Shown in pieces: positions 9,141 through 38,811 of a stretch of 64,000 nucleotides of DNA (the stretch's first letter is position 1; the number at the start of each line of letters is the position of its first letter). The DNA comes from Dermacentor variabilis. Its lineage: Eukaryota; Arthropoda; Arachnida; Ixodida; Ixodidae. The position numbers were made by a program, and so were the translations under genes. The stretch lies in the NCBI RefSeq assembly GCF_050947875.1, contig NC_134570.1:209465750-209529749 (forward strand), given 5' to 3'. The notes under the pieces were generated by a model. The model searched no databases. It was given only the letters and a program-made list of their open reading frames with translations, and was not told the DNA's origin.

Positions 9141-9150
9141 TGTAAGGCGG

Positions 9151-11574
9151 CAAATAGCCATTTGCGGACATCGCAAGCGTAATTTCGACGATAGAGAACA
9201 CCAACCCGCAACTCAAAATGAGAAGCTTGGCGGCGGATAGCGCGTGAAGGGCGTGTTGTTGAAGTGTCAGGAATGTAATCCATCAGTGTCGCATTCCAGG
9301 GATCTTTGCGTTGCTCCACAGGCATGTTGACGTGCACAGGTGACGAAAACGCCGATTCGAAGAGTGAAATGCAAGTCATGTCACTTGGTATAAGCGACCG
9401 AGAGAGGGCATCCGCGTCGGTGTGTTTACGGCCAGACCGGTAAATGACGCGGATGTCGAAGTCTTGTAACCGTAGAGCCCATCGCGCAAGGCGGCCAGAT
9501 GGAACTTTTAATGTCGATAACCAACACAGAACATGGTGATCTGTAACGACGTCGAAGGGGCGGCCGTACAGGTAGGGTCGGAATTTTCCAAGGGCCCAGA
9601 TGATAGGCACGCACTCCTTTTCGGTGACGGATTAGTTGGATTCCGCGTTCGTTAGTGTTCGGATTGCGTAGGCTACTACGCATTCATCATTCCCAATTTT
9701 TGCTGTGAAAGCACGACACCCAGTACTACACCACTGGCGTCGGTGTGGACTTCCGTGGGGGGCCATGGGGTCACAATCGCACAGTGCGGGAGGCGAAGTG
9801 AGCAAATGCCGCATTGTTTCAAAAGCATCGTCGCAAGCTGTGGTCCAAGAAGAAAGTCGTTTGTCGCCGCGAAGCAGCTGAGTAAAGGGAGCAATGATAG
9901 AAGTGAAATTCCGGATAAAACAACGAAAGCAGGGCGATAAAGCTCCGAAGTTCTTTCAGGGACGTGGGTTTCGGGAATTCGGTGACGGCGCGAAGTTTGG
10001 AAGCGTCAGTTAGTATGCCATCTTTCGATACGACGTGTCTGAGTATTGCAACTGCTTGGCTCCAAAGCGGCATTTCTTCAAGTTGAGCTGGAGGCCTGCC
10101 TCGATGATGCACTGCGAGACATGTTCGAGACGGTACAGATGTGTGAGAAAATCTGGACAAAAGACGACGACGTCGTCAAGGTAACATAGGCATGACTTCC
10201 ATTTCAGCCCACGAAGGAGATTGTCCATCGTTCGTTCGAATGCAGCAGGGGCGTTGCAAAGCCCACACGGCATAACGTTGAATTCGTATAGGCCGTCTTT
10301 GGTCACGAAGGCTGTCTTCACGCGATAGGCAGGATTCATAGGCCCTTGCCATTAGCCTGAGCGTAAACCGGCTGAAGAAAAATAATGTGCGCCTTGCAAA
10401 GAATCCAGAGCATCGTCGTTGCGCCGTATAGCGTAGACGTCTTTGCGAATTATCTTATTAAGACGGCGGTAGTCGACGAATAATCGAATTGAGCCATCTT
10501 TTTTTCTTAACCAGGACTACAGGTGATGCCCAGGGACCATTAGAGGGTTGAACCACTCCCCGCTCAAACATTTCGCTTACTTGGCTTTCGATAACACGGC
10601 TCTCCGCGGGTGATACAGCGCAGTGGTGCGTGGGTGCCGGTGTGGATCTCGTGACGTAGAGTCGATGTGCGGCCTATTGGGGTTTGTTGACAATAGGACG
10701 TAGATTTGTATTTCCGTAGAAGGCTGAGAAGATACGAACGCTGCGTAGGGCTCAGAATGGCATCCACTGAGCTATGGAAAACATCTTGCGTAGGTTGGGG
10801 AAAAGGCAAGGTATAAGTTAAAAAGTTCAGGTCTGAGCAGGTGTTGTCAAGAGGTGCTTCAAAGATGGTTACTGAAATGGCAGGCTGAAGACGTCCAAGG
10901 CAGTCGCCATGCGCCATGACGTAAGACAAGGGACGTGGCCTTAGCGTTGGAAACGAGCAGTCGCGTGCAGCCACCGCTGCCAGTTAGGACAGCGAAGGGA
11001 AGGGAACATCGTCGGCGAACAAAAATGTCCGTAGGGACAAACAGGGCAGTAGTGTCAGTGGCGAAAGTAGAGCAAGCATTTGCAATAACAGAAGAGTGTG
11101 GAGGGATCATGGTGTTTTCTGTAACGGCCAGTGTGTCACCAAAATGGTCAAGGTCATGTAAACGGGTATCGGGAAGCGGAGAAAATTCAACTTAGGCGCT
11201 AGAGCAATCAATGATAGCCTGATGATCGGAAAGGAAGTCCCAGACCAAGATGTCGTCGTATGAACAGAATGAGAGGACGACGAACTCGACTTTATACGGG
11301 TAGCCTTTGAATGACGATGGTGGCGCTACATGTGAAAACAGGGTTACTGCACTGGGAACTTGCTGTCCGGAGTGACAGCGCAGATTAGAGGTCATTACTT
11401 TTGGAAGCTTGCGTCAAAGTCCTTCCGTAACTATTGAAACGGTGGCGACTGTGTCGACTGATACCAGTGTGACGACGCCTTCTACAGATACTTCGATTAC
11501 GTTCGTCGGAAGAGAGCGACGCTTTGCGTGGTTTGACTGGAACGGAGTTCTCGCCTATTGAACTGCGGTAGCTA
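9151..11574 (-). pseudogene. pol: Gy-B1 pol, decayed and 3'-truncated
   Basis: The protease region (about 11500-11190) is badly broken. RT motifs are visible: LYEFNVMPCGLCNAPAAFE and catalytic CYLDDVVVF near 10170. RNase H is split by a frameshift and a stop ([12 protein letters not shown] near 9750; [10 protein letters not shown] near 9520; [13 protein letters not shown] near 9420). Only the first residues of integrase remain ([14 protein letters not shown]) before the deletion at about 9160. Several frames must be joined, so no enzyme can be made from this copy. Confidence 0.8.
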
Positions 11575-12769
11575 GTTTTCCTGCCCCGATGGGGCTGGAC
11601 GCCACCGCATGGGGGAAAGTGAGCCGCGACGAGGGGATGGCGAGCGACAATCACGGGCACAAGGAATGACTTTGCTCGCAGACGGCAAGTGCGAGTCATT
11701 TGGTGGCGAGAAGAACGAAGCTGGCGAAGTGTAGGGGCGGACAGGTTGATCATTACCTTGAAGCCATAAGCGACCGCGACAGTGTCGTGCTACCTGACCA
11801 GGGATTCCACAGAAGAAGCACACGGGGCGATCGTCGGGTGTACGCCAGGGTCCCGCGCTAGCTGGTGATATGGTGGTGTACACTGGAGGGATTGGACATG
11901 GCGGTGCAGCAAACGGTGCTGCTGAAAAAGTCGATGGAGGTGGTCGTGCTGCAACCTCAGCGTGGCTTAGAGGTACAGGTAATGGTGGCGCAGCACGAGG
12001 GGACTGAATAGCTTCGGACACTTGTTCCAGGAGCATCTGACGCAACGTAGGGCCAAGGACGGCGTAGGACCTGGGGCGGCGGTGAGTAGGGATAGCTGGT
12101 GGGCGACTTCGGAGCGTATAAATTCGTTGATTTCGCCGAACAGATGGTCGTTGTTTGTCACAGCGGCTAAACTTGCAATGGAAGTATCGGGGATCGAAGA
12201 ACGTCGAGTGAGTAGAAGTTGCCTCCTGAGTTCGTCGTAGCTTTGACAAAGTTAAGCGACTTCGACCATGGTCCGCGGCCTTTTCGAGAGGAGCTTTTGA
12301 ATGCGCCGTCTTCGATGCCCTTCATTAAGTGACGGATCTTGTCAGACTCAGACATCGATGGATCGACGTGCTTGCAAAAGTCCACAACGTCTTCTATGTA
12401 CTTGGTGAAGTTTTCACCGGGTTGCTGGGAATGGTTTCGCAAGCGTTGCTCGACACGGAGCTTCCGCACCTCAGGGCGATCGAAGACTTGCATAATGCGC
12501 GCCTTGAAACCTGGCCAGGTGGCGAGCTCGGAATCGGGGTTATGGTACCACACGCTAGCGACTCCCGGGAGATAGAAGTTCACGTACCTGAGCTTCACAG
12601 CATCGTCCCATTTATTGTGGACACTCATGCGCTCATATGTCGAGAGCCAATTTTATTCGTCGTATTCGCCGGAACTGCTGAAGATCGGAGCATCGTGTTG
12701 ACGCACTGAGCCAGGAGAAATCAATGTTGGCGATGCCGGAGGTGTTGTTCGGCTGGCTTAGTCAGGCAT
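11572..12769 (-). pseudogene. gag: Gy-B1 gag, decayed
   Basis: Capsid-like domain with HNKWDDAVKL, GVASVWYHN, PEVRKLRVEQRLR and GENFTKYIEDVVDFC. The zinc knuckle is CFFCGIPGQVARHC, in which the usual His is Gln. An Arg/Ser/Pro-rich tail follows. The ATG at 12769 is followed by TAA at codon 4, and another stop interrupts the NWLSTYER region. A frameshift after DGAFKSS (about 12280) moves the C-terminal part to another frame; the same frameshift occurs in Gy-B2, so it predates the duplication. Gag ends with GGAAAAC directly before TAG (11581-11575 and 11574-11572). Confidence 0.8.
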
Positions 12770-12841
12770 GATGGCCGGCAGTGTCCCATTACGTAGTTCC
12801 AAGGTGGTTGGAGAAGTACTACCCAGCAACTCCCCCAAGTA

Positions 12842-12983
12842 TGCAAGGCGGTTTATTGAGCACTCAGAAACGCGTCCATTTTAGGCGTGCGTCAGACACC
12901 GAGGGCGCGAGCCCCTCTTCGTTGGCGGGCCGATGATGGCAGTGCGTCAATAGAGATGGAGCGTGCCAGTCTTCTTCGCTACA
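12842..12983 (-). repeat. 5' LTR of Gy-B1 (142 bp)
   Basis: Minus strand starts TGTAGCGAAGAAG and ends AATAAACCGCCTTGCA, followed by TACTTGGGGGAG (primer-site region). It is collinear with 29269-29410. ATAT lies outside. Confidence 0.8.
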
Positions 12984-12987
12984 ATAT

Positions 12988-37790: not shown

Positions 37791-37974
37791 GCACTCCCCC
37801 CCCCCTACTTGCTAATTCATATCAATTTTGCACGCTAAGTCACAATAAAACTCTCGTAATTGTGTAGTACATGAAAACCACTTGCGAAAACGCTGTTCAC
37901 TGTTCGTTAGTAACGCGCTGTTCAATAAATATTTCACAATATCTTTGTAAATTCATCGCTTTATTTACTTTTAA

Positions 37975-38697
37975 GAGGAAGCTATAGCTCGGGCCCAACT
38001 CCGACGCGGCCTATTCAAATACATGTAAAACGCAAAAACGTTTTTATGAGATAATCCCTGGACCGATTTTGATGAAATTTGTTGCGTTTGAAAGAGAAAG
38101 TTAAATTCTAGTGTCTGTTGGAAGCGAAGTTTCGATTTAGGACTTAAATTTTCTTAAAACAATTTTCAAATATCTGACCGTCTGAAAAAAATAGACGCAC
38201 GAAGTTTACAAATTCATAGCTCTGCATCAAGAACTGATATCGCGGTTCTGTAAACGGCATCCATTAGATCATTCAAAGCGGACAAGTTCAATATGTCATT
38301 TTACATCTTACGTGAGTTTGTTACGTTGGTTACAATGGTTTTGCAAAAGTTGTATTTCCCTACGACTAATTTTTTTATATTCATGTGTAACATATCAATT
38401 TCGTCCGCTTTAGATGTACTAATAGATGCAAATCACAGAATTGTATTATCGTATTTAGTGGTTGAGTTACAGAGTTGTAAACTTGATAGTTTCGTTTTTT
38501 GAAAATTTACGATTTTTTCCAATTTTTATTAAAAAATTGACAACCTAACTCAAAAATTCGAAACCAACAGTCACTAGATCTTAATTTTGTCTTTTAAATG
38601 CAACAAACCTCGTCAAATTTGGTGCAGTGGTTGCCGAGAAAAACGAATTCTCCTTTTACATGTATTTACATAGGAGCACTCGAGCTAAAGCTTCCTC
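37975..38697. mobile_element. TTAA-flanked MITE (723 bp) with terminal inverted repeats
   Basis: Ends GAGGAAGCTATAGCTCG and CGAGCTAAAGCTTCCTC are imperfect inverted repeats, extending inward with a shared TACATGTAAAA. TTAA flanks both sides (37971-37974, 38698-38701). It splits one 66-bp unit; the matching unit in the other arm (14641-14706) has an uninterrupted TTAA. Interior AT-rich, no transposase. TTAA duplication is the hallmark of piggyBac-type transposition. Confidence 0.8.
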
Positions 38698-38700
38698 TTA

Positions 38701-38784
38701 AGTGAAGTTGATGTGGGCAATAAATATTTCACAATATCTTTGTAAATTCATCGCTTCATTTACTTAAGTGAAATTGATGTGGGC
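38701..38784. repeat. 66-bp repeat units of segment X2
   Basis: One complete inverted unit (about 38719-38784) and the 3' portion of the unit split by the MITE (its other part is about 37923-37970). Confidence 0.75.
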
Positions 38785-38811
38785 AGGACAGGTCTGCATT
38801 CAGTACCACCT

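What the first reader, a model, noticed from the sequence alone, without database searches (positions are those of the whole stretch)
9141..38811. 30-kb inverted duplication: a minus-strand locus split open by a plus-strand copy of itself
Seen: minus-strand order X2, Gy-D2, (TA)n, Gy-E3 (38811 to 32412) and Gy-E1, Gy-B1 (14552 to 9141); plus-strand order X1, Gy-D1, (TA)n, Gy-C palindrome, (TA)n, Gy-E2, Gy-B2 (14553 to 32410). If the middle is removed, the outer pieces read as one continuous X-D-(TA)n-E-B locus, and the middle reads as the same locus in the other direction. The X-D arms match in length (14553-17820 is 3268 bp; 34811-38811 is 4001 bp, or about 3272 without one 723-bp MITE and its TTAA). 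Either a real inverted-duplication insertion or an assembly or haplotype mis-join.
Basis: partly seen in the sequence, partly recalled or inferred. Interest (0 to 1): 0.9.

Follow-up and report, generated by a model that had tools for sequence, protein, structure and literature searches.

The report
Inverted duplication inside retrotransposon nest
A 10-kb stretch of an arachnid (probably tick) chromosome, packed with old retrotransposons, was copied backwards into its own middle, and a younger retrotransposon inside that copy was folded into a near-perfect palindrome; it looks like real, well-preserved DNA-repair scarring rather than a new kind of system.

Summary
The geometry is real. About 10.1 kb aligns between an outer, split minus-strand locus and an inner plus-strand copy: 423 mismatches in 10,084 aligned bases. 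Two tests show true duplication, not independent insertions of the same elements. Low-copy segment X is found at 97% identity or more only in these two copies. Element E lacks, at the same point in both copies, a segment that relatives carry, and both share 71 states absent from the other E copies compared. Copy 2 extends further at both ends and is most simply the parent; copy 1 is joined bluntly at 14550/14551 and through ~16 bp of filler at 32411-32426. The '30 kb' merges two events: the central Gy-C palindrome (18007-25335, arms 99.4%) is much younger. It is a Ty3/gypsy element whose front 3.1 kb is repeated inverted around a 1.1-kb single-copy spacer. Its arms share six states absent from every other copy read at those sites, so both came from one molecule. 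Likeliest mechanisms (inferred): templated insertion of the locus into a break in itself; later, fold-back synthesis inside Gy-C resolved in flanking (TA)n. A cDNA-level origin of Gy-C is not excluded. Read support could not be checked.

The parts
34811..38807 (-). X2-D2: arm of copy 2. Low-copy X plus a Ty3/gypsy fragment (Gy-D); holds the MITE
   Evidence: 96.7% to 14553-17820; X low-copy; the match to copy 1 stops at 38807 while copy 2 runs on
37971..38701 (.). MITE with TTAA at both ends and inverted termini, in copy 2 only
   Evidence: copy 1 has the site with one TTAA, read by eye
34671..34810 (.). (TA)n between D and E in copy 2: the site without Gy-C
32427..34670 (-). E3: front part of element E (LTR, gag, protease remains) in copy 2, cut off at junction 2
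32411..32426 (.). Junction 2 filler, about 16 bp, matching neither side
   Evidence: the boundary on the E side is ambiguous by about 7 bp
14551..17820 (+). X1-D1: front of the inserted copy 1
17821..18006 (.). (TA)n left of Gy-C
18007..21119 (+). Gy-C left arm: start of LTR, gag, protease, part of reverse transcriptase
21120..22222 (+). Single-copy spacer of the palindrome: RNase H and what looks like the start of integrase; colinear with the left arm in the 20 other copies fetched
   Evidence: integrase start judged by eye
22223..25335 (-). Gy-C right arm: inverted copy of 18007-21119 (19 mismatches in 3113, no gaps), ending at the same LTR edge
25336..25445 (.). (TA)n right of Gy-C
25446..29264 (+). 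E2: copy 1 of element E with both LTRs, lacking a segment of about 1.46 kb (RNase H to integrase, inferred), followed by ATAT and element B
29269..32410 (+). B2: gypsy element B (gag, protease, RT remains) in copy 1, cut at 32410
12988..14550 (-). E1: rear part of element E in copy 2, begins at junction 1
9141..12987 (-). B1: element B in copy 2; 9141-9854 has no partner in copy 1; bounded by (TA)n at 9054-9140

Best explanation
Two separate inverted-copy repair events hit a (TA)n-anchored nest of Ty3/gypsy retrotransposons. Event 1 (old): a break in element E of locus X-D-(TA)n-E-B was repaired by inserting a ~10.4-kb reversed copy of that same locus, templated from the sister, the homologue or the locus itself, joined bluntly on one side and with ~16 bp of filler on the other, with 16-23 bp of E lost. 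Then each copy went its own way: a TTAA MITE entered copy 2 and a Gy-C element entered the (TA)n of copy 1. Event 2 (young): in Gy-C, synthesis broke off in the integrase region, folded back about 1.1 kb, copied the element in reverse to its LTR edge, entered the (TA)n and was resolved in the (TA)n on the far side, replacing the element's rear ~1 kb. Shown: duplication by descent, relative ages, single-molecule origin of the Gy-C arms. Inferred: which copy is the parent, the repair pathways, and that event 2 took place in the chromosome.
For: Arms align over 10,084 bp with 423 mismatches. X (14707-15500) has two matches at 98-100%, both in the window; the best-scoring of the other 39 matched stretches is 82% over 388 of 794 bases; copy 2 runs on past 38807, copy 1 does not. 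Both E copies lack the same segment, about 1.46 kb in four of the six E relatives fetched (junction printed for both copies), and share 71 states absent from the relatives, against 92 and 90 private states (3773 sites with letters in at least five of six relatives). Junction 1: 1 of 40 scored hits spans it. Palindrome junction: 1 of 40. The Gy-C arms share six states seen in none of the fetched copies with data (18 copies at one site, 20 at five); of 19 arm differences only one is a common family polymorphism. Site 20862 was read in 28 distinct copies and none shares the palindrome's state. 18 of 20 Gy-C relatives are colinear from the LTR start through 22222; those with both ends read are 5151-5200 bp. 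The single-copy spacer of 1103 bp fits the published fold-back pattern (PMC3907307, passages). Florendovirus work links insertion in (TA)n to fragility and filler repair of breaks (PMC4241990, passages). Relative age: E LTR-LTR K2P 0.149/0.103, duplication 0.033-0.054, Gy-C arms 0.006.
Against: At the Gy-C fold the direct junction homology is only about 1 bp; a 6-bp match is reached only by assuming a prior 41-bp skip (read by eye). X-D is less diverged than E and E-B (chi-square p 0.0014), so a single uniform clock for the duplication does not hold; later exchange between the arms is one possible cause. No third copy was found that could prove which copy is ancestral. No reads, depth or second assembly. 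Junction 2 was not searched genome-wide. The Gy-C outer edges coincide with LTR termini, which integrase-mediated insertion also predicts.
Confidence: 0.6

Rival explanations
1. The Gy-C palindrome arose during reverse transcription: a plus-strand cDNA switched template onto a plus strand, giving a linear DNA with U3 ends on both sides, which integrase inserted into (TA)n.
For: Both outer ends stop at the LTR edge inside (TA)n; the family prefers (TA)n, 10 of 19 copies with both flanks known against 106 of 22,638 far-flank bases in (TA) runs; the arms come from one parent sequence.
Against: A source element with the six shared states would be expected; none was seen in the 18-20 copies read per site, nor at site 20862 in 28, though most of the family was not read. 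The (TA)n flank makes the exact edge trivial for in-situ folding too. The target-site duplication cannot be read in (TA)n.
Confidence: 0.2
2. Two Gy-C elements inserted in opposite directions into the same (TA)n, and a deletion removed both rear ends.
For: Strong (TA)n preference makes repeated hits plausible; a single deletion would leave this geometry.
Against: The left arm differs from the fetched copies at 12-54 sites (the 12 from a copy read over 2391 of 3113 bases), yet shares with the right arm six states seen in none of them, and only one of 19 arm differences is a common family polymorphism.
Confidence: 0.08
3. Assembly or library artefact: fold-back chimeric reads or a haplotype mis-join.
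For: Inverted near-copies are classic artefact shapes (recalled); no reads were available.
Against: Arms differ by 19 substitutions with no gap (Gy-C) and by 423 in 10,084 (outer); each outer copy has an insertion the other lacks; junction 2 has filler; no N in the window.
Confidence: 0.1
4. The arms resemble each other only because common gypsy families inserted independently in both orientations.
For: Six other E copies are 91.9-93.1% identical to E2 over their longest aligned piece, not far below the 94.8-95.7% between the window copies.
Against: Low-copy X is duplicated; same internal deletion; 71 shared states in E; same element order and nesting. One pair of the other E copies also shares 42 such states, so shared states alone would be weaker.
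Confidence: 0.02

Closest known systems
Fold-back inverted duplications of human chromosomes (PMC3907307; passages read)
   Same: Inverted copy separated from the original by a single-copy spacer, loss of sequence beyond the turn
   Different: Those are about 10 kb to tens of Mb and are joined to terminal deletions, translocations or rings; here the copy is 3.1 kb, lies in one retrotransposon and ends in (TA)n; inverted microhomology at the turn is not clearly present
Templated and inverted insertions at double-strand breaks (PMC11724301; search listing and abstract start only)
   Same: Inverted, templated DNA at a break, ascribed there to a fold-back mechanism
   Different: Those are mostly ~5-34 bp; here ~10.4 kb
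Small inverted triplications (PMC13334657; abstract read)
   Same: Inverted copies ascribed to replication errors
   Different: DUP/IN/DUP of about 150 bp each; here each segment is present twice, not three times
Endogenous florendoviruses in plant (TA)n repeats (PMC4241990; passages read)
   Same: Retroelement sequences strongly biased towards TA dinucleotide repeats; (TA)n proposed there as fragile DNA where breaks are filled in
   Different: Plant caulimoviruses; here Ty3/gypsy elements with LTRs and, outside (TA)n, short target duplications, so integrase is the likelier route of entry
Ty3/gypsy LTR retrotransposons with short LTRs
   Same: gag, protease, RT and RNase H; LTR of about 147 bp in Gy-C relatives and 156 bp in E
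   Different: Gy-C here has inverted LTR ends and lacks its rear ~1 kb

Membership tests
Ty3/gypsy LTR retrotransposon (Gy-C) | gag, aspartic protease, RT, RNase H in order | tested here: met
   Retrotrans_gag, RVP_2/gag-asp, RVT_1, RT_RNaseH
Ty3/gypsy LTR retrotransposon (Gy-C) | LTRs in direct orientation at both ends | tested here: not met
   Window copy has LTR starts in inverted orientation; 18 of 20 relatives have the full front and a second LTR in direct orientation, the other 2 have the rear LTR but an incomplete front in the stretch fetched
Ty3/gypsy LTR retrotransposon (Gy-C) | integrase | tested here: inconclusive
   No integrase match in the Gy-C ORFs scanned, but 21892-22222, where it would begin, was not scanned; judged by eye only
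Ty3/gypsy LTR retrotransposon (Gy-C) | 4-5 bp target-site duplication | tested here: inconclusive
   By eye, 8 of 9 relatives outside (TA)n with both flanks show a 4-5 bp repeat (L031 does not); unreadable in (TA)n for the window copy
Fold-back inverted duplication | single-copy spacer between the arms | tested here: met
   1103 bp, 21120-22222; published range 766-70,466 bp
Fold-back inverted duplication | 2-8 bp inverted microhomology at the turn | tested here: inconclusive
   About 1 bp directly; 6 bp only after a presumed 41-bp skip (by eye)
Fold-back inverted duplication | loss of sequence beyond the turn | tested here: met
   About 1 kb of the ~5.2-kb element missing
Segmental duplication by descent (outer arms) | shared low-copy sequence and shared private changes | tested here: met
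Segmental duplication by descent (outer arms) | junctions spanned by reads | not testable with these tools
   No reads held

The most novel reading that the evidence does not exclude
Gy-C is a palindromic, U3-to-U3 retrotransposon cDNA that integrase inserted into (TA)n: an LTR element integrated with two identical U3 ends, made by template switching between plus strands during reverse transcription. If so, such hairpin-forming palindromes may be a recurrent by-product that seeds further inverted rearrangements in (TA)n landing sites.
Probability: 0.18. Interest if true: 0.55.

Novelty: new member of a known kind. Interest (0 to 1): 0.36.

Why it matters
It is a clean example, datable in relative terms, of a locus copied backwards into itself, with the site lacking Gy-C preserved in the other copy, and of a single retrotransposon molecule turned into a near-perfect palindrome. 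It suggests how (TA)n arrays that attract gypsy elements may become hot spots for inverted rearrangement. If the cDNA route were shown for Gy-C, it would bear on whether LTR-retrotransposon integrase can use two U3 ends.

Tried and rejected
Rejected: chance or independent gypsy insertions as the cause of the arm similarity. Rejected: one single 30-kb event (K2P 0.033-0.054 vs 0.006). Considered and set low: two insertions plus deletion for Gy-C. ARAGORN (bacterial code) found no tRNA gene and Rfam gave no match at gathering score in the window. Paper searches: no listed title or abstract start reports a U3-to-U3 palindromic LTR retrotransposon (13 papers with at least 3 of 4 terms; 1 paper) or (13 papers, mostly on retroviral integration and LTR circles, LTR-finding software and RNA editing by their titles). 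For LTR elements in (TA)n, (15 papers; 3 papers) were searched; one of the latter, PMC4241990 on plant florendoviruses, does describe a strong bias to (TA)n (passages), so retroelements in (TA)n are not new. In one search (133 papers, 8 listed) none of the 8 holds the phrase 'TA dinucleotide repeats'. The library holds open-licence papers only, so absence there is weak evidence.

Not achieved: genome-wide search for a sibling of Gy-C with the six shared states (window 20850-21450; unanswered) and for junction 2 (not completed). Other unanswered genome-search runs, later answered: 11 (then 16), 12, 18, 22, 25 (then 27), 29, 33, 35, 39, 42, 54, 57 (then 61), 63, 66, 70, 76 (then 79).
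Full report
Setting. The window is G000:C3:209465750-209529749 of a 2.48-Gb genome in 605 contigs. Among the 120 listed of 6589 protein relatives of Gy-C pol, those that carry a name are mostly arachnid, ticks (Dermacentor, Rhipicephalus, Ornithodoros, Amblyomma) among them, with a few others such as Trichinella and a fish; many rows have no name. Ixodid tick is my inference, not shown.

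Observation. Reading the minus strand, copy 2 runs X2-D2-(TA)n-E3, is interrupted, then continues E1-B1. The interruption is copy 1 on the plus strand: X1-D1-(TA)n-[Gy-C palindrome]-(TA)n-E2-B2. Alignments: X-D 3155 bp at 96.7%, E 2249 bp at 94.8%, E-B 4680 bp at 95.7%; summed, 423 mismatches in 10,084 bp. The part 9141-9854 of B1 has no partner.

What the pieces are. Gy-C is Ty3/gypsy by Pfam (gag, protease, RT, RNase H); E1 has an RT match and B2 a gag match; D, E and B are also recognised by tblastn with Gy-C proteins. E is a whole insertion with LTRs at 25446-25601 and 29109-29264, sitting between (TA)n and an ATAT next to B. The families like (TA)n. For Gy-C, 20 of the 38 non-window hits scored were fetched; one has no 5' flank in the stretch and was dropped; 10 of the remaining 19 lie in (TA)n, against 106 of 22,638 far-flank bases in (TA) runs of six or more units (one-sided binomial p 4.5e-19). 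One of the ten (L021) has a truncated front, so one of its (TA)n flanks is not an LTR edge. Of the nine others, eight show a 4-5 bp target repeat by eye. For E, the five copies with both edges printed, of six fetched, all sit at ATAT or (TA)n. Retroelements biased to (TA)n are known in plants (florendoviruses, PMC4241990, passages).

Duplication by descent. Because gypsy copies resemble each other anyway, arm similarity alone proves little: six E copies elsewhere are 91.9-93.1% identical to E2 over their longest aligned piece. Three tests settle it. First, X (14707-15500) has two matches at 98-100%, both in this window; of the other 39 matched stretches the best-scoring is 82% over 388 of 794 bases (40 of 42 candidates scored). 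The X edge 38702-39100 has a full-length match only to itself; the other matches at 97-99% are pieces of X or of its 66-bp repeat inside the window, and one 85-bp piece elsewhere is 75%. Second, a segment of about 1.46 kb, present in four of the six E copies fetched (about 1.1 kb in a fifth; the sixth is not covered there), is missing at the same point in both window copies. Third, over 3773 sites with letters in both window copies and at least five of the six others, the window copies share 71 states absent from the others and have 92 and 90 private states; 11 further differences fit neither class. As a yardstick, counted with a looser site filter, the 15 pairs among the six others shared 0-7 such states in 14 pairs and 42 in one, so related pairs do occur elsewhere.

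Polarity and junctions. Copy 2 continues past copy 1 at both ends (38807 and 9855; in B the continuation is still gypsy coding sequence), so copy 2 is most simply the parent and copy 1 the insert; no third copy was found that could prove it. Junction 1 (14550/14551) is blunt; in a 400-bp search only the window spans it (1 of 40 scored of 218 candidates; the other 39 cover 1-198 or 1-200). Junction 2 has filler at 32411-32426, and 16-23 bp of E are missing from copy 2, the range reflecting an ambiguous edge. This is what insertion of a templated copy into a break by end joining would leave; it is inference.

The palindrome. Gy-C arms 18007-21119 and 22223-25335 differ by 19 substitutions and no gap, around a 1103-bp spacer. 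Of the 20 other copies, 18 are colinear with the left half from the LTR start through 22222, and two lack part of the front in the stretch fetched; those with both ends read are 5151-5200 bp. So the rear ~1 kb is missing here. The junction at 22222 is spanned only by the window among 40 scored of 1249 candidates. The two arms share six states at which none of the fetched copies with data agrees (18 copies at one site, 20 at five). Of 19 arm differences one is common in the family, one is seen in a single other copy, and the other 17 are private to one arm; counting that single-copy one, 13 changes fall on the right arm and 5 on the left (p 0.096). Adding eight further distinct copies at site 20862 (ten loci, two of them repeats of the same copies), 28 of 28 lack the palindrome's state there. 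Both arms therefore descend from one molecule. One search counted 4268 candidates in its first look, so most of the family was not read.

Mechanism for Gy-C. In-situ fold-back explains the spacer, the loss beyond the turn, the single-molecule origin and, through (TA)n, the clean outer edge. In human fold-back inversions the sequenced spacers are 766-70,466 bp, and 13 junctions have 2-8 bp of inverted microhomology (PMC3907307, passages). Here direct homology at the turn is about 1 bp; a 6-bp match requires a prior 41-bp skip (read by eye), so that feature is inconclusive. (TA)n as fragile DNA where breaks are filled was proposed for florendoviruses. The cDNA route (two U3 ends integrated into (TA)n) remains open at about 0.18-0.2.

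Ages, relative only. E LTR-LTR K2P 0.149 and 0.103; outer duplication 0.033-0.054; Gy-C arms 0.006. So E is oldest, then the duplication, then the palindrome. X-D is less diverged than the rest (p 0.0014), which may reflect later gene conversion between the arms.

Verdict. Real by all sequence evidence at hand, most likely caused by known kinds of repair error, instructive but not a new kind of system. The main open point is read support. 

Noticed in passing
window 46191-51453 (-): A long non-LTR retrotransposon with an endonuclease-RT ORF of 1222 aa and an upstream ORF of 551 aa, both open.
   Followed up: no
window 40051-44347 (+): Another Ty3/gypsy element, with protease, RNase H and a match to the integrase core just below Pfam's cut-off; no (TA)n array was listed near it.
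   Followed up: no
L017-L036 and L047-L052 flanks: Two gypsy families of this genome strongly prefer (TA)n or ATAT as insertion site.
   Followed up: partly
window 14553-17820 vs 34811-37970: The X-D part of the arms is less diverged than E and E-B (3.3% vs 4.3-5.2%), a possible sign of gene conversion between the inverted arms.
   Followed up: partly
window 52291-52538 and 59514-59753: A 250-bp direct repeat at 85% identity, unidentified.
   Followed up: no
window 9054-9140: Element B1 stops at a (TA)n array in what looks like coding sequence, with no LTR edge seen there: another (TA)n-linked break (by eye).
   Followed up: no
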